Source of the DNA: Pseudomonadota bacterium
GTDB lineage: Bacteria; Pseudomonadota; Gammaproteobacteria; Steroidobacterales; JBCBZW01
Assembly (NCBI GenBank): GCA_039193195.1
Contig: JBCCWS010000014.1
Location: 1-64,000, forward strand
Direction: 5' to 3'
Length of the DNA: 64,000 nt
Position 1 is the first letter of the stretch. Each line of letters starts with the position of its first letter. The notes beneath the pieces were generated by a model. It worked only from the letters and a program-made list of their open reading frames with translations. It had not been told where the DNA came from and ran no database searches. The translations under genes were made by a program, and so were the position numbers. Positions 26,357 through 50,900 of the stretch are shown one piece after another.

Positions 26357-26520
26357 CTAGTGTGCTGCCCCAGAAGTCCGTTGAAAATACGCACGGGGCC
26401 TTTCGTTCCTGGGTGCGGCGCGACGACGAGCGTGGCAGGCCCCACGGGAGGAGGAGCAACGTACTCAGGGGCGAGAAGTACCCGCGTATTTTTCAACGAA
26501 CTTCTGGGACAGCACACTAG
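26357..26520 (+). mobile_element. CTAG-bounded inverted-repeat element, copy B (MITE-like)
   Basis: A 164-bp element with ~36-bp terminal inverted repeats (two mismatches and one indel between arms), each arm beginning CTAG then TGTGCTG. Inner arms are also partly complementary, so nearly the whole element can fold around an asymmetric core containing GACGACGAGCGTGG. It encodes no protein. CTAG at both ends fits a 4-bp YTAR target duplication as seen for IS5-type transposases; that parentage is a guess. Confidence 0.85.
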
Positions 26521-26850
26521 CGCCAGCGGATCGAGTTGCTGACGCAGTGATGCGTCGATAGCGCAGCCGAAGATCGGCAGCGACTCAGTCCCATATCCGG
26601 TGGTTAACGTTGCCATGATCTGCTCACCACGCGCGACGCTTGCGGCAGGATGATCAAAATAGCCCCCCAGATAGAGCAGCTCGCCGCGCCTGTCTGTGAC
26701 CAGCAAGGCGTACGGGGAACTGACACCCCGGACACTGGTCGGGCTGAGCGAGGTAAGCCGCCAGTGCCGGGGCACCACCGGGAAGAGGGGAGTACAACCC
26801 CGTCCCTGGGGGTGTGGATATTCTTCCCTCGCAGACGCACCGGCGCCCAC
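26521..26850 (-). pseudogene. Possible remnant of a thioredoxin-fold/DUF6436-like gene ended by the repeat element
   Basis: On the minus strand a coherent protein segment reads ALLVTDRRGELLYLGGYFD, then EQIMATLTTGYG, then PIFGCAID before running into the repeat element. The order (hydrophobic strand, DxxG turn, YxGxY strand, helix, GC motif) resembles the C-terminal half of DUF6436-type thioredoxin-fold proteins, which end in a GC(F/A)-type motif. The N-terminal half is not found in a single frame. I regard it as a decayed gene whose 3' end is now the element; family assignment is tentative. Confidence 0.35.
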
Positions 26851-33044: not shown

Positions 33045-34114
33045 TCAGTTCCCGCCCCACGCACCAAGGCTGAGCAGCGCCCACCACATCGTCGCCACTT
33101 GGTTGTCACGGCCGGTCATCTCCCAGCGGATGAGCGAGATCGGAATCTGCTCCGATGCGCGAAAGCGATCGTGGAAGGCACCCAGATCGAAACGCCTACC
33201 GCGCTGCGACGCCACCTCGGCCAGCAACGCTTCCAGCTCAACCTTACCCATGTAATAGCCGATACCGTAGCCTGGCTGGCGCAAGTAAAGCTCTAGATCG
33301 AAGCGGGCGATCGCATCGTTCGGCCCCATCCAGTAGGGCGTTCGGGTGGTGAGGGAGTCGAGGGCCTGGGCGTAGGTCCACGCGTTCTTGTGCATCTGAA
33401 GCTCCGGCATCACGCGCGCGGCACGCTTGGCTTGCAAGATGTAGTGGATCTCGCGAGTCTTCGGCCGATCGCTGAGCAAGCCCGTCTGCAGGATCATCTC
33501 CTCAAGGTACATGGCCCAGCCTTCAGCCCGGATGCCGCTGATGAAGTACAGGCGGGGATCGCCACGGATCAGACGTTTGTCGCGGCGCTGCTCTAGTGTC
33601 CTGAGTTAGAAGTTCGTGGATGAATTCGCGGCACCCTTTCGCCCCTGAACGCGTTGCTCTTCCTCCCGTGGGGCCTGCCACGCTCGTCGTCGCGCCGCGC
33701 TCAGGGATAAAAACTCGCGTGCGAATTCATCCACGAACTTCCAACTCAGGATACTAGGGAATCGAATAGGTGCCCTGGCACGTTGTGGGCGCGCAGGGGA
33801 ATCGGCCAATCCTGATCGTCGATCGCATCCAAGCCGGTGCGAAGCTCGATCAGTGCTTGGTGCTGAGCCCGCATCGCCGCCAGCGAGTAGTCCGCGACTC
33901 CCTAGTGCCATTCGCCCTGCGCCAGCGCGCGAAAACGCTCGTAGAGGGTGAGCAGCTGCCGATAACCCGCGTAGCTCTCACCGACATCGGCCGCAGCCGC
34001 TCGCGTGGGCAACCAAGGTGACTCCGGCTCTGCCCACACGGGCGACGAGCAAGCCCCCGCAACAAGCAACACAGCAAGCGTGCGGCCCCAGTTCCTTCGC
34101 ATCGCGCCTGCCAT
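33045..34114 (-). pseudogene. Broken DUF885-family gene carrying a repeat element
   Basis: Reading right to left, a signal peptide (MRRNWGRTLAVLLVAGACSS, near 34102) starts a DUF885 protein. An in-frame TAG at 33902-33904 interrupts it, after which the family sequence resumes (GVADYSLAAMRAQH). The frame then runs into the repeat element. On the other side the C-terminal part resumes (YFISGIRAEGWAMYLEEM, LRQPGYGIGYYMGKVE, ISLIRWEMTG). About 110 N-terminal and 190 C-terminal residues remain of a family that is usually near 580, so the middle, including the metal-binding region, is gone. Lesions: one nonsense codon, one large internal deletion and one insertion. Not expected to give a functional protein. 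Confidence 0.85.
33593..33757 (-). mobile_element. CTAG-bounded inverted-repeat element, copy C (inside DUF885 pseudogene)
   Basis: A 165-bp element with CTAG at both ends and ~36-bp terminal arms matching with two mismatches. Its core (GACGACGAGCGTGGCAGG on the minus strand) matches copies B and D, but in the opposite orientation. The arm sequence (GTGGATGAATTCGC) differs from copy B (GTTGAAAAATACGC) on both sides, so the arms have changed together. Confidence 0.88.
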
Positions 34115-41761: not shown

Positions 41762-41926
41762 CTAGTGCCCTGCCCTGTTAGTTCGTTGAAGAAGTCGCAC
41801 GGGGCCTTTTGCTCCTAGGCGCGGCGCGAGGACGAGCGTGGCGGGCGCCACGGGCGGAGGAGCAACGTGCCCAGGGGCAAAAGGTACCGGCGAATTCTTC
41901 AACGAACTAACCTGACAGGGCACTAG
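41762..41926 (+). mobile_element. CTAG-bounded inverted-repeat element, copy D
   Basis: A 165-bp element, same orientation as copy B, with ~37-bp terminal arms (four mismatches between arms) and CTAG at each end. Outer arms start TGCCCTG, unlike TGTGCTG in copy B, yet match each other. The right-hand CTAG contains the stop codon of the TonB receptor gene on the minus strand. It lies ~100 bp upstream of the SDR start, where it may separate the two genes. Confidence 0.88.
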
Positions 41927-46002: not shown

Positions 46003-46350
46003 GATCCCTCCCCACCAAGGTCAGCGGATTTCGAGGCGCCATTATGCAGGGCCGACGCCGGCGTTGTGACGACCACGCTGCCACTCACCATCATGCGCGT
46101 GCGGGTGGCGGCGTCGCCAGGCCCCAAGCGGTGTTTCGCGGTGGTGCTTTGCAGCAGCGTACTCGCCCCTACCGCTTACAGCCCAAGGGTCCGTGGTCTC
46201 GGCGGCCCTGTGTCGCGCCTGGCGTCGAGCCATGTCGGGATTCCTCCACGCTTTCCGTAACACCCAGTAGGCGCGGGCAACAGCCGCGATTCTCCCTCCG
46301 CGAAACATCTACGGCGACGCGGCGCCCACGGAAGCCAAGGAGATAGGGAA
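46003..46350. other. Intergenic stretch without a recognisable gene
   Basis: About 350 bp between the LuxR-type gene and the exported-protein gene. Frames on both strands are arginine/proline-rich and look like noise. An AAGGAG ribosome-binding site near 46336-46341 belongs to the next gene. No repeat or strong hairpin was noted. Confidence 0.5.
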
Positions 46351-47208
46351 GTGCTCAACCACCCCATGCTGATAACGCCCCATACCTCGTTTGCCGTCCT
46401 CGCCCTCATCGCCCTGAGCAGCCACGGAGCGAACGCCGAGGAGGCCTCTCCACGCAACTGCGACACCCCCTGGGCCAACCACGGCGTGTCCGAAGCCACC
46501 ATCGTGTACGGCGCAGACGAGCTGATCCCCCCGGGAGAAGGCCCCTTTCTGCCGATGGACGAGGTGCGCAACACGCCCGCGTATCGCGCCCTCGCCTTCG
46601 ACTTCTTCGAAGCGCGCTTCGGCGTGGCCTTCGACGTCAACAACCCCGGCATCCAGATCGCCGTCGACGCCTCGGGACGCGTCGCCGAGATGCAGCCCAT
46701 CAAGTTCGGCCTAGGATCCACCCACCAGGTGTACGCCATCGATGCGCAGCGCATCCCTCGCTGGCGCCACCGCATGCCGATGACCAACGTGGCCCTGCGC
46801 GATGACGGCTACTTCGTGTTCATCGGCGCGGACGGCTTCGAGGTGAACGGCACCTACGGCGGCGAGGCGGGCGTCACCTTGCCCGCGGGCACGGTGGTGC
46901 TGCTGGGTGAGTATCGGATGTTCGACGAGAACGATGAGCTGATGGATACGCTGCGCTACTTCTCGGATCAGCCGGCCTTTGCCGTGGTCGATCCGGGGGC
47001 GCCGCTGCCGACGACGCTGTTTACGATCACCTGCAAGGTGCAGAGTGAGATCTTTGGGGAGGGCCAAGTGGGCGCGCTAGGTCAGCTCGTTGCGCTCGAG
47101 GATGGGTCAACGGATTTGGACTTTCGCTACACGCTGCGGTTTCCGGCGCGGATTAGGGATTCGGGCTTGATTCGGCCGCGGTGTAAACCGGCGCGGGCGT
47201 TGGAGTAG
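46351..47208 (+). CDS. Hypothetical exported protein
   Basis: A GTG start nine bases after AAGGAG leads into a signal peptide (FAVLALIALSSHGANA) and a 260-residue mature protein with two N-terminal and two C-terminal cysteines. The body is beta-rich (DDGYFVFIGADGFEVNGTYGG split as DDGYFVFIGAD and FEVNGTYGG). I recognise no family. The TAG stop at 47206 is in the same frame as the reverse-transcriptase fragment that begins at the very next codon, but the protein itself shows no reverse-transcriptase motif, so the join looks like a recombination junction. Confidence 0.6.
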   Translation: MLNHPMLITPHTSFAVLALIALSSHGANAEEASPRNCDTPWANHGVSEATIVYGADELIPPGEGPFLPMDEVRNTPAYRALAFDFFEARFGVAFDVNNPGIQIAVDASGRVAEMQPIKFGLGSTHQVYAIDAQRIPRWRHRMPMTNVALRDDGYFVFIGADGFEVNGTYGGEAGVTLPAGTVVLLGEYRMFDENDELMDTLRYFSDQPAFAVVDPGAPLPTTLFTITCKVQSEIFGEGQVGALGQLVALEDGSTDLDFRYTLRFPARIRDSGLIRPRCKPARALE

Positions 47209-47469
47209 AGATCGCTCCGTTGGCTAGGCTTCGTTGTGTTCCCGAGCCACCGGCGGGTGAAGGCGCGCAAGGTCCGCGCCAGTCACCGCCACCTCCGAGC
47301 GCGCCTGTCGGACTATCACGCGGGGAAAATCAGCTTCGCGGAGTTCGATGCAAGCGTGAAGGGCTGGGTCAATCACGTGAGCCAGGCAGAGACCTGGGGC
47401 CTGCGGCGGCGTGTGTTGGACTCGCTCGTCATGGAGCCGCCCCGAGATGAGAAGGAAGTCGAGCGGTAG
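47209..47469 (+). pseudogene. C-terminal remnant of a DGR/retron-type reverse transcriptase
   Basis: The 86 codons after the upstream stop read [20 protein letters not shown], then a basic helix, then [20 protein letters not shown] and [10 protein letters not shown]. This is the thumb and C-terminal pattern of reverse transcriptases of diversity-generating retroelements and related bacterial groups: (F/W)LGF strand, RRLKRRNV-like basic loop, ~30-residue helix, then (V/I)xxWxxHxxxA(D/E)TxxLR. The palm domain with its YxDD motif is missing upstream, so the enzyme is dead. A possible restart GTG is at 47236. It converges on the TIR-NACHT-FGE gene with 66 bp between stops. Confidence 0.75.
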
Positions 47470-47498
47470 CGTGCCGCCGCGAATCCAAAATCCGCGTA

Positions 47499-47520
47499 AG
47501 GCGGCGCTGGCGCGCCGCCT
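47499..47520. other. Perfect GC-rich hairpin beyond the variable-repeat gene (DGR-type or terminator)
   Basis: A 9-bp perfect stem (GGCGGCGC plus a closing A-T) with a 4-nt loop lies 15 bp after the stop of the TIR-NACHT-FGE gene. DGR target genes need a GC-rich hairpin/cruciform of about 8 bp with a 4-nt loop just downstream of the variable repeat for efficient homing, and this matches in size and place. The loop (GCCA in the target sense) is not the GRNA reported for the phage model. It could equally be a bidirectional terminator between convergent genes; no T tract. Confidence 0.6.
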
Positions 47521-47535
47521 GTCAGGGGGCAGAGG

Positions 47536-50286
47536 TCAAGATGGGGACGCTAAACACAAACGAAAACCCACGACGTAGCTACGGTGGAACGGATCGCTGG
47601 GGACGCGGTCCTCGGACAGCGCGAGGTTCCGGTTGTTGTACCAGGACCCACCGCGCAGCACGCCAACCGAGCGGTCCTCATCGGGGCCTGGCGCGCACCA
47701 TTCGAGAACATTACCCGTCATGTCGTGTACCGCGTACTCGGTGCAACGGGCGCGGGGAAAGATCCCAACCGCGCTGGGTTGCCCCAAGCCCGCCTCAGAA
47801 GTGTTGCAAATGCCTGATTCCCAATCGTCGCCCCAGGCGTACGCGCCTCCTCTCGCGCCACGTGCAACAGCCTCCCACTCCGTTTCGACGAGTAGCCGAC
47901 CCCCTGCCCACGCCGCACATGCTTCGGCTTCGAAGTAGCTCACGCCAACCACAGGTTGATTGGGCGAATTGAAGCGAGACGCCGCTACATACCGAGGCGA
48001 TTCCAGCTTAGTGCGCTCCAGCCAAGCCCACCCTGGTTCCGACCACCACTTGCGCTCGCGATACCCCCCCTCCTCAATGAACTCCGCAAACTGGCGGTTC
48101 GTTACGGGATAGCGCGCTACCCGAAGCGGCTGATGCAGCGACTTGATCTTCTTGACGACTGCCTTGGGCAGGTTGACCACCGGTATCTCCACGTACGCAG
48201 CAGGGTCCCCCAAGGAAAGGACACGAGGATCCCCCATGCGCCCCATGGTCAGCGCCAATGCCTGTCGGCTCGATAGGGCAATCTCACCCTCTATCGCTTG
48301 CAGCGCAAGCTGGACGAACGGCGCCTTGATCGCCTCACTCACCGCGCGCCCCTTCGCCAACATCAAGTCGAGCATCTCCGCCAGTAGGTGCGCCCGCGCT
48401 GGATTCTCCTCTACTTCCTTACGTTGCAGCTCACCCAGCCGTTTCTGAAAAAAGCGCACGACCCAGTCCGGCCGCTTTATCTCCAGCAGTGCAGCAAAGA
48501 GAAACACTAGCGTAGGTCGCCACTCGGCGACTGCGCCCCAACGCGCAAAGGCCTCGTGGGGCTCGTCGCTGCGGCAAAGGTGCTCCGCTGCCAGGTACTC
48601 CTGGAAGCTGAGGTGGTAGAAGGCGACGTCGGCGCCACGGGGCAGCAGCAGCCCGGACTTCTCGAGCAGCGTCTCGCAGCGCTCGCTCGGTTCCACCCGC
48701 GCATCCTCTTGGCTCCATCCCTGGTTGCCCATGTCGAGGAGCACTCGCTCGGCCTCGCGACGCGGCACCTCCGGCGCCGGCACCTGCCGCGGCTCATCCT
48801 CCGTGCCCTCATGCATCCCCAAGGCAATGGCTTCCAGGCGCGCGTTGATCGGGTCCGTCTCACGCTTGCCGCCGGGGAAACGGTTGAACAGCACGTTCTC
48901 CACAAGCCGCTTGTAGAGATGATAGCGATCCTCCGGCAAGCGTCCCCCGCCGTCGTAAAGGATGCATACGGAGGTGAGCAGCATGGGGTTCTCAACCAGC
49001 GGCTCCAGCTCGGCACGCTCATCAATAGCCTGTATCGATTCGTCGGCGAGATGCTCCTTGCGTAGCGTGTGGAACCAACGCTTGACGAATAGCTGCTGTA
49101 ACTCTCGCGGTAACGGGGACAGGGTGACTTCAGGCAAGCCCAAGCGGTGCAGCCGGGCGCGTTCCATGCCGCCCGGGCGCCCCGTGAGCAGCACCCGATT
49201 GCCGACGCCCAGCCAGCGCGGCATCGCGTCTGCGAGGCCGGTCAACACTAGCTCACGCGGATACGCGGTGGAGCCCTTTCCCTGGGCGGATTCGGGCAGC
49301 TCGTCGAGGCCGTCGATGAGTAGTATTGCCGTGCCCGCGCCTAGGTGCTGGCGCAGCTGATCGCCACCGAGGCTCGAGATGGCCTCGTCCACGTAGGCCG
49401 CTAGCGCAGCCTCCAGTTCTTCCATGCACCACTCCCGGGCACCAGGGGGGAAGTGCGTGCGCGGGCCGAACTCGCGCAGCGGCACGAGCACCGGCAAGTG
49501 CCCCGCGAGCGACTCGGGGATCGACTCGCGGCACTCATCGGGCGTCGGAACCGGGTGGTCGAGGGCCTCATCGCCCAGGCACTGCAGCATGACCCACCGA
49601 CAGAAGGTGGACTTTCCCGTGCCCGCCTGCGCCAAGATGTAGCAGGAAGACTCGCCCAGGCGGTTGAGCAGGGGCTCGAAACGTGGCCCCTCTTGCTTGT
49701 CCTCGCGGCCTCGCGCCAACGCCATCTCGTCCTGGCGCGCCGCCGTGAGGGCGGGCACGTAGACGTTGTCGAGCTGGAAGGCGTGGCTCTTTTCGGCCTG
49801 TTGGCCGAGGAGATCGACGTTGGTGTACTTGTCCTTCACCCACTTGACGTACTCAGGGGGCACTTCGGGGGCAGCTGGCGTCGGATCGCCGGCCAGCGCC
49901 CGAACGGACGCGACCAACACGTCGTAACCGTCGTGCTGCTTCGTCGGCGTCCACCCAAACAGGTCCGTGTAGTTCAGCAGATCGTGTTGCACGGGCGTCG
50001 TCACGTCCTGCAGCTTGACCGGCACGAGTTTCTTCGCCCGCAGCGCACGGCTCGCCTCGGCGGGCACCCAATCGCTCTGCAGGGCAGCGTCCGACCAGAG
50101 CACGACGACACACGTCGCGCTATCGAGCTCCTTGTCGATGACTTTATCGACACGTTGGCCGGCCAGCATGGTGACGTCTCGGAACACGCTCCACCCAAGC
50201 GCCTTGAGCGCTTTATGGAGCTTGTCGGCGATGCCGTCGTCTTCTCGCGCGTAGGAGATGAAGATGTCGTGTGGTTTGTCGCTCAT
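47536..50286 (-). CDS. TIR-NACHT-FGE-sulfatase (C-type lectin fold) protein, likely DGR target
   Basis: Domains in order: TIR at residues 1-~135 (HDIFISYARED; WVPAE with candidate catalytic E77), a linker, a STAND/NACHT NTPase (Walker A QAGTGKSTF ~220; Walker B ILLIDGLDELPE ~320; winged-helix region with FYHLSFQEYLAAEHL), and a formylglycine-generating-enzyme-like domain from ~715 (RVARYPVTNRQFAEFI, QPVVGVSYFEAEACAAW, TEWEAVARGARGG, DMTGNVLEWC, VLRGGSW, VGFR). The ATG at 50286 follows AAAGG. In this architecture the lectin-fold end acts as sensor, NACHT oligomerises, and TIR cleaves NAD or signals, as inferred from families. The last ~30 codons have variable-repeat character. Length 916 aa, intact. 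Confidence 0.9.
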   Translation of the reverse strand: MSDKPHDIFISYAREDDGIADKLHKALKALGWSVFRDVTMLAGQRVDKVIDKELDSATCVVVLWSDAALQSDWVPAEASRALRAKKLVPVKLQDVTTPVQHDLLNYTDLFGWTPTKQHDGYDVLVASVRALAGDPTPAAPEVPPEYVKWVKDKYTNVDLLGQQAEKSHAFQLDNVYVPALTAARQDEMALARGREDKQEGPRFEPLLNRLGESSCYILAQAGTGKSTFCRWVMLQCLGDEALDHPVPTPDECRESIPESLAGHLPVLVPLREFGPRTHFPPGAREWCMEELEAALAAYVDEAISSLGGDQLRQHLGAGTAILLIDGLDELPESAQGKGSTAYPRELVLTGLADAMPRWLGVGNRVLLTGRPGGMERARLHRLGLPEVTLSPLPRELQQLFVKRWFHTLRKEHLADESIQAIDERAELEPLVENPMLLTSVCILYDGGGRLPEDRYHLYKRLVENVLFNRFPGGKRETDPINARLEAIALGMHEGTEDEPRQVPAPEVPRREAERVLLDMGNQGWSQEDARVEPSERCETLLEKSGLLLPRGADVAFYHLSFQEYLAAEHLCRSDEPHEAFARWGAVAEWRPTLVFLFAALLEIKRPDWVVRFFQKRLGELQRKEVEENPARAHLLAEMLDLMLAKGRAVSEAIKAPFVQLALQAIEGEIALSSRQALALTMGRMGDPRVLSLGDPAAYVEIPVVNLPKAVVKKIKSLHQPLRVARYPVTNRQFAEFIEEGGYRERKWWSEPGWAWLERTKLESPRYVAASRFNSPNQPVVGVSYFEAEACAAWAGGRLLVETEWEAVARGARGGAYAWGDDWESGICNTSEAGLGQPSAVGIFPRARCTEYAVHDMTGNVLEWCAPGPDEDRSVGVLRGGSWYNNRNLALSEDRVPSDPFHRSYVVGFRLCLASPS
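47560..47655 (-). other. Variable-repeat-like segment of a diversity-generating retroelement
   Basis: Between the fixed LRGGSW and VGFR motifs, thirteen codons have the form NNC, reading Y N N, N, L, D, V, S, F, H, S, Y, V. Fixed Arg and Pro codons stand at the positions where DGR templates for this domain usually carry them. The pattern is what adenine mutagenesis of AAC (Asn) codons at positions one and two gives. It is the standard location of the variable repeat in FGE-type DGR targets, at the extreme 3' end. No template repeat was found by eye in this window. Confidence 0.7.
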
Positions 50287-50578
50287 CAAATGCCTTTCTT
50301 CTTCCCCGAAGGACGGGTGCGGTCGACGCTGGCGTACCTCGCGCGAGGGCCCCACCCGGTGATTCCTCCCCGAGCAAGCTTACCCATTCTCAAGGCGACC
50401 TAGCCAACTCCCCGCGGGCGTCCAGCCACGAGAGATCGTCCTTGCCGTGAAGCCGCCTCGACCGGACATTCGCCCGCGCGCTGCAAGGTCCTATCGGTGC
50501 CTATGTCAGATGCGCCGCGCTCCCCACGAACTCCTCCGCATGGTCCTTGTAAAGTGCGACACTGAAGGAGAACATCGC

Positions 50579-50881
50579 ATGGCCTCGCCGTACCCGCCAG
50601 CACGTCCGTTCCAAACCTTCTGCAGTGGATTGACCATCGCCGCCATCCTCCTCCTCGGAGCCGCACTACCTGACGACACCGAGGCGCACGACAGCCAAAG
50701 CACCTCGGTGCGTACGGATCGCCCCGTGTTCCTGCAGCACGGCGGCGAGGGCCGATTTGACGGGGATCAGGCCTTCGCACTCGATCTGAAGCCACCCTCC
50801 TCGCGGACACCCCAGAGCCGTCGGCGCAGGCCGCATCCCTATGTGCCCGGCGCAACGTTCGCCGATCACGCGACACGTTAG
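50579..50881 (+). CDS. Small hypothetical exported protein
   Basis: A 100-codon gene with GGAG 8 nt before the ATG. The product has a signal-peptide-like segment (FCSGLTIAAILLLGAAL) and a short, basic, proline-rich mature part ending in RRRRPHPYVPG. No family recognised. It is 19 bp upstream of the lipoprotein gene and may be cotranscribed. A ~290-bp stretch between this gene and the TIR-NACHT-FGE start holds nothing else that I can identify. Confidence 0.5.
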   Translation: MASPYPPARPFQTFCSGLTIAAILLLGAALPDDTEAHDSQSTSVRTDRPVFLQHGGEGRFDGDQAFALDLKPPSSRTPQSRRRRPHPYVPGATFADHATR

Positions 50882-50900
50882 GCCACGCTATAGGCACTCC

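What the first reader, a model, noticed from the sequence alone, without database searches (positions are those of the whole stretch)
47536..47660. 3' end of a TIR-NACHT-FGE gene has the signature of a DGR variable repeat
Seen: between LRGGSW and VGFR, thirteen codons are NNC (TAC AAC AAC, AAC, CTC, GAC, GTC, AGC, TTC, CAC, AGC, TAC, GTC), with Arg and Pro codons fixed between them. Known: diversity-generating retroelements copy a template repeat with adenine-specific mutagenesis, AAC codons are the classic hypervariable codons, and FGE/C-type-lectin domains are the classic targets with the variable repeat at the extreme C terminus. NACHT/STAND sensors with DGR-diversified lectin ends have been reported in multicellular bacteria. 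Inference: this is an immune-type receptor whose ligand surface has been hypermutated, coupled to a TIR effector.
Basis: partly seen in the sequence, partly recalled or inferred. Interest (0 to 1): 0.9.

Follow-up and report, generated by a model that had tools for sequence, protein, structure and literature searches.

The report
Stranded target of a lost hypermutator
The tail of this bacterial immune-type receptor gene looks as if it was once rewritten by a targeted mutation machine, but in this genome only the end of that machine's enzyme is left beside it, so the receptor may be frozen.

Summary
The 3' end of a TIR-NACHT-FGE gene (47536-50355, minus strand) carries the codon signature of a DGR variable repeat (VR; core 47557-47655). 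In L067 and L068, orthologs (48% and 47% identity) sit in the same position beside full-length RTs, with a template repeat (TR) and a matching hairpin. Ten columns that are AAC/AAT in at least 80% of 43 TRs from other genomes are all NNC here (P=3e-5). Differences from both orthologs at those columns avoid codon position 3, unlike the rest of the gene (P=0.001-0.002). No TR for this VR was found in its genome or in 395 others of the order, although four other TR families in the genome match ten VRs without a non-adenine change. Best reading: an orphaned DGR target, the right half of a decayed two-target DGR. Degenerate DGR loci with STAND/TIR-FGE targets are published (PMC10907252), so this is a new member of a known kind. 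Immune function and present-day diversification are untested.

The parts
47536..50355 (-). Target gene, 939 codons, open: TIR (49921-50265), NACHT (49069-49632), FGE/C-type-lectin domain (47557-48144)
   Evidence: motifs FISYARE, SDWVPAE, AQAGTGKSTF and LLIDGLDE present
47557..47655 (-). VR core, RGGSW to VGFRL
47553..47571 (-). 3' end of the VR, 19 nt identical to the C61 TR and its VRs; place of an IMH-like element (name by analogy, not tested)
47499..47520 (.). Hairpin, 9-bp stem and 4-nt loop (GCCA in the sense of the target gene), downstream of the VR
47212..47469 (+). 3' remnant of a DGR RT gene (last ~85 codons and stop), tail-to-tail with the target
47209..47216 (.). Probable deletion or rearrangement junction: DNA similarity to DGR RTs starts at 47216-47224 in the longest-reaching matches, just after the stop of an unrelated 285-aa gene (46351-47208)

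Best explanation
The segment is a DGR variable repeat stranded in a former DGR locus. The ancestral locus had the layout of L067: target 1 with VR1, TR, Avd, RT, then target 2 facing the RT tail to tail. Here everything left of the last quarter of the RT gene is missing; RT tail, target-site hairpin, VR and the whole TIR-NACHT-FGE gene remain. In its active past (inferred from the family) the RT copied a TR with random changes at adenines and the cDNA replaced the VR, changing surface residues of the C-terminal lectin-type domain; ligand binding there would switch the NACHT module and activate the TIR effector. Shown: VR signature, RT tail, hairpin, orthologous loci with full-length RT, no TR found. 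Inferred: past hypermutation of this copy, ligand binding, TIR output, and that this copy is no longer diversified.
For: RT tail 52% identical to residues 288-378 of the C61 RT, E=1.1e-24; 63-75% identity in the first eight rows of the genome-contig scan. Orthologs in L067 and L068, 48% and 47%, tail-to-tail with RT frames of 404 and 403 codons; the same two loci are the top two RT-tail matches by E-value. L067 TR against its two VRs: 20 and 19 of 26 adenines changed, no other site in 120 nt. RT motif to VR end: 198 nt in the window; 154-351 nt, median 212.5, in 24 of the 82 other sequences scanned. Hairpin like those of L067 and L068; stem of 7 bp or more in 62 of 86 VR-like, 9 of 53 TR-like and 167 of 2000 random 130-nt stretches. 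Ten of ten columns NNC, P=3.2e-5. Codon-position spectrum P=0.0012 and 0.0018. FGE model aligns with TvpA, Z 23.0.
Against: No cognate TR found, so adenine-restricted change cannot be shown directly for this copy. Against the TR consensus the adenine bias is weak (15 of 27 adenines, 16 of 60 other sites changed, P=0.015), and the closest TR elsewhere leaves 11 non-adenine differences. The hairpin loop GCCA does not fit the phage consensus GRNA. 16 of 84 translated matches to the RT tail start before the junction; I take these as weak extensions because that stretch is matched by a 64%-identical ortholog of the 285-aa gene in G001. In L068 the TR-VR match allows only 57-60 nt before a third non-adenine difference.
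Confidence: 0.88

Rival explanations
1. The VR is still diversified in part of the population: strains with an intact RT and TR at this locus coexist, or a TR lies in an assembly gap and is served by the RT of C61, C7 or C55 in trans.
For: 113 contigs, 98.7% complete; DGR loci C61 and C44 reach contig ends. PMC10907252 reports a locus (DGR 7) whose VRs have no match elsewhere in the reference genome but which is intact in other strains, and trans-diversified loci (passages). The C44 VR, beside a truncated RT, matches the C61 TR at all 61 non-adenine sites compared.
Against: The window VR differs from the four TR families found at 14-29 non-adenine sites; no TR for it was found.
Confidence: 0.25
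2. The target arrived by lateral transfer or rearrangement already without RT and TR, carrying the RT tail as a passenger; it was never diversified in this lineage.
For: No strong full-length homolog in 395 other genomes of the order (E 1e-40) or 368 others of the class sample (E 1e-60); same-genus G001 has another gene after the 285-aa ortholog; closest orthologs are in a Rhodospirillales MAG and Defluviicoccus.
Against: None directly; the time of the loss cannot be told from one genome.
Confidence: 0.35
3. An ordinary FGE-domain protein whose C-terminal codons end in C by chance, without DGR history.
For: G+C-rich genome; no TR found; two other FGE tails of the genome without a known TR also score 9 and 7 of 10 NNC.
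Against: RT tail in the expected orientation and distance, hairpin shared with L067 and L068, orthologous targets in DGR loci, codon-position spectrum.
Confidence: 0.03

Closest known systems
Degenerate DGR loci of Thiohalocapsa PB-PSB1, RT clade 5D (PMC10907252; abstract, sections 7 and 12, passages)
   Same: STAND/NACHT targets with C-terminal FGE/CLec VR, some with TIR; loci with RT or TR missing; a VR without match in its own reference genome
   Different: There MITE-like arrays or transposons replace the missing parts at several loci; here the RT is cut off abruptly and no such array was noted at the junction. Clade membership of this RT was not tested by a tree.
DGR of L067 (Rhodospirillales MAG) and L068 (Defluviicoccus sp. 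SSA4)
   Same: Orthologous FGE target in the VR2 position, same hairpin type, RT tail 64-67% identical
   Different: RT full length; L067 has TR and Avd; N-terminal Metallophos domain in place of TIR, and Pfam NACHT not scored at E 0.001 in either
TvpA, Treponema denticola DGR variable protein (PDB 2y3c)
   Same: FGE-type C-type-lectin fold, Z 23.0, rmsd 2.6 over 199 residues; sequence match E=3.8e-5
   Different: A separate variable protein, not joined to TIR and NACHT (recalled)
C44 locus of the same genome (L051)
   Same: 5'-truncated RT tail-to-tail with a NACHT-FGE target
   Different: Its VR matches the C61 TR at 61 of 61 non-adenine sites; effector domain DUF4062

Membership tests
Functional DGR (cis-complete) | Intact RT | tested here: not met
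   Only the part matching residues 288-378 of the 385-aa C61 RT remains
Functional DGR (cis-complete) | TR matching the VR except at adenines | tested here: not met
   None found in own genome or 395 others of the order; assembly gaps not excluded
Functional DGR (cis-complete) | Accessory protein Avd | tested here: not met
   bAvd only on C61 and C7; DGRs without Avd exist (recalled)
Former DGR target / degenerate DGR locus | VR signature at the 3' end of a CLec-fold gene | tested here: met
   10 of 10 columns NNC; codon-position spectrum; fold
Former DGR target / degenerate DGR locus | GC-rich hairpin just downstream of the VR | tested here: met
   9-bp stem, 4-nt loop, like L067 and L068; loop differs from phage GRNA
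Former DGR target / degenerate DGR locus | Remnant DGR machinery in the expected position | tested here: met
   RT tail at 198 nt, within the range of 24 other pairs
Former DGR target / degenerate DGR locus | Adenine-restricted variation between strains | not testable with these tools
   No same-species genomes or reads available
STAND/NLR-like receptor with TIR effector | TIR, NACHT and C-terminal sensor domain in one protein | tested here: met
   NACHT only just over Pfam's cut-off (27.7 against 26.7 bits)
STAND/NLR-like receptor with TIR effector | Ligand-triggered NADase or antiphage activity | not testable with these tools
   Needs an experiment; PMC10907252 (section 12) says CLec-STAND sensors were uncharacterised

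The most novel reading that the evidence does not exclude
Frozen receptors: once a useful binder exists, loss of TR and RT is tolerated or favoured and the receptor is kept with a fixed specificity. The genome would hold a live repertoire (C61, C7, C55) beside locked receptors (this locus, perhaps C3 and C5), a bacterial parallel to fixing a germline receptor out of a hypermutated pool.
Probability: 0.15. Interest if true: 0.75.

Novelty: new member of a known kind. Interest (0 to 1): 0.45.

Why it matters
It shows a DGR target outliving its mutator with an open frame and recognisable domains, in a genome that still has DGR loci with full-length RTs. That makes a simple question testable: is a stranded receptor kept for its fixed specificity, or is it only a relic? 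The TR-derived codon columns, the hairpin and the RT-tail geometry used here also offer a way to recognise former DGR targets when neither TR nor an intact RT is left.

Tried and rejected
TRs of C61, C55, C34 or C7 as source of the VR: rejected, 17/61, 29/68, 29/72 and 14/48 non-adenine differences. A TR elsewhere: the spaced pattern with up to 3 mismatches found only the VR itself in its own genome and among 396 genomes of the order, own included. Best TR in the loci held (L080) leaves 11 non-adenine differences. Viral contigs: no stretch matched the peptide patterns from residues 153-939. Rfam: of L025, L067 and L068 only L068 had a match, a tRNA. Terminator reading of the hairpin: not among the four terminator-like sites of 46200-50900; a terminator role is not excluded. 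Ordinary FGE tails as codon control: none in register.

Rows dropped or limited: the genome-contig scan confirmed 125 relatives and kept 80. Of these 80, 51 gave a TR-VR candidate and 29 none; 45 TRs were in register; L127 and L129 were dropped as misread, leaving 43. L122 and L123 have an identical TR core, so the 43 are not all independent, and they include L067. The motifs missed L067, L068, L025 and L026. C61 VR2 and the C7 repeats were compared over the last 66 of 99 nt only. The sorting into VR-like and TR-like is by AAC/AAT count, and put the C34 TR among the VRs. 66 of the 73 FGE tails went into the alignment for the fold. The structural comparison saw 157 chains. Exposure of VR residues in the model was not measured.

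Full report
What is there. The minus-strand gene at 47536-50355 encodes TIR, NACHT and FGE/C-type-lectin domains.

The neighbour that decides it. On the plus strand, 47212-47469 encodes [19 protein letters not shown]...GWVNHV..., the C terminus of a DGR reverse transcriptase: 52% identical to residues 288-378 of the 385-aa RT on contig C61 of the same genome, E=1.1e-24. A genome-contig scan with an alignment of this stretch and three RT tails of the same genome confirmed 125 relatives, of which 80 were kept; identities in the first eight rows are 63-75%. DNA similarity starts at 47216-47224 in the longest-reaching matches, and 68 of 84 translated matches start at or near that place; 16 start earlier, which I take for weak extensions. 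The stop of an unrelated 285-aa gene ends at 47208; that gene has a 64%-identical ortholog in the same-genus genome G001. In 16 kb around it there, neither the target nor the RT tail was matched. The RT body with the YVDD region is missing.

The counterpart with full-length RT. tblastn of the target against the 80 loci and seven loci of the own genome puts L067 (Rhodospirillales MAG) and L068 (Defluviicoccus) first: 48% over residues 163-938 and 47% over 141-938. Both orthologs lie tail-to-tail with an RT frame of 404 or 403 codons, and the two loci are also the top two matches of the RT tail by E-value. L067 is complete: TIR-nSTAND1-FGE target, TR, Avd, RT and second target; its TR differs from the two VRs at 20 and 19 of 26 adenines and at no other site in 120 nt. 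In L068 the TR-VR match is shorter (57-60 nt with two non-adenine differences). From the RT motif GWVNH to the VR end the window measures 198 nt; 24 of 82 other sequences scanned have such a pair, 154-351 nt, median 212.5. Both orthologs have a Metallophos domain where the window protein has TIR, and Pfam NACHT was not scored in them at E 0.001.

Target-site hairpin. Downstream of the VR, 47499-47520 reads AGGCGGCGC-GCCA-GCGCCGCCT in the sense of the gene. The L067 ortholog has AGGGCGGCGC-GCCA-GCGCCGCCCT, the other L067 VR and the L068 VR2 have GTCA-loop versions, and L068 has a similar stretch near its VR1. A stem of at least 7 bp lies in the 130 nt after 62 of 86 VR-like cores and 9 of 53 TR-like cores, and in 167 of 2000 random stretches. 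In phage BPP-1 such a hairpin is needed for efficient homing; phage loops read GRNA (PMC3240598, passages), which GCCA does not fit.

Codon evidence. Ten columns are AAC/AAT in at least 80% of 43 TRs from other genomes; the window has NNC in all ten (P=3.2e-5 against the gene's own usage). Differences from L067 at these columns fall 9, 8, 1 on codon positions 1, 2, 3; outside the VR 367, 321, 492 (P=0.0012). From L068: 8, 4, 0 and 372, 335, 537 (P=0.0018). L067 against L068, both beside full-length RTs, shows the same: 6, 6, 1 and 136, 102, 319 (P=0.0003). This is the pattern of adenine-targeted change in AAC/AAT codons. Against the consensus TR the bias to adenines is weak (15 of 27 against 16 of 60, P=0.015), as expected if the true TR is another one.

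No template. The genome holds four TR families: C61, C55, C34 and C7. In ten comparisons with their VRs no non-adenine change was seen over the stretches compared. The window VR differs from the same TRs at 17/61, 29/68, 29/72 and 14/48 non-adenine sites. A spaced pattern finds only the VR itself in its own genome and in 396 genomes of the order, own included. In this assembly the VR is an orphan.

Fold. An AlphaFold2 model of the FGE domain (mean pLDDT 88.4) aligns with EgtB (Z 27.2), human FGE (Z 23.2), the DGR variable protein TvpA (Z 23.0, rmsd 2.6, 199 residues) and Mtd (Z 14) among the 157 chains compared. [quoted passage not shown] this was not measured on the model.

Mechanism. Most likely this is the right half of a two-target DGR of the kind described for multicellular bacteria (PMC10907252: abstract, sections 7 and 12, passages). 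Retrohoming diversified the lectin-type end of a TIR-NACHT sensor; then TR and RT body were lost and the sensor stayed as an open gene with its last sequence. Shown: VR signature, RT tail, hairpin, orthologous loci, no TR found. Inferred: activity on this copy, ligand sensing, TIR output, present inactivity. The same paper reports a locus whose VRs have no match elsewhere in the reference but which is intact in other strains, so strain data could overturn 'frozen'. One genome cannot tell whether the loss came before or after the gene entered this lineage.

Status.

Noticed in passing
L051 13772-14291 (+) and 14445-17486 (-), contig C44: A second relic of the same layout in this genome: truncated RT tail-to-tail with a DUF4062-NACHT-FGE target whose VR matches the C61 TR at 61 of 61 non-adenine sites, though the coding DNA just upstream is only about 66-68% identical to C61; VR to hairpin is nearly identical. 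Fits trans-diversification or conversion.
   Followed up: partly
L053 5187-5285 and 5438-5536 (-), contig C34: A TR-VR pair 250 nt apart (10 of 15 adenines, 0 of 72 other sites changed) at a TIR-NACHT-FGE gene; no RT motif found in the 12 kb fetched.
   Followed up: partly
L027 8357-12079 (-), contig C55: One 1240-aa gene with two FGE domains and two VRs of the same TR family, beside a DGR RT.
   Followed up: no
L025 8640-9013 and L051 1-123: Near the start of a VR at the end of C61 and at the start of C44 the sequence breaks into similar foreign ends (TGTGCTAGT..CGAC.TGATCTGAC), as if a mobile element sat in the VR; the two contigs may adjoin.
   Followed up: partly
L030 4879-6219 (-), contig C3; L052 4681-4779 (-), contig C5: Two more FGE tails that look like VRs (NNC 9 and 7 of 10) without a known TR; C3 is a TIR-FGE protein of about 446 residues by its sequence.
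   Followed up: partly
window 26357-26521, 33590-33757, 41762-41926, part at 116-183: A dispersed repeat of about 130-165 bp in both orientations, with copies in the C7 and C44 loci and in G001.
   Followed up: no
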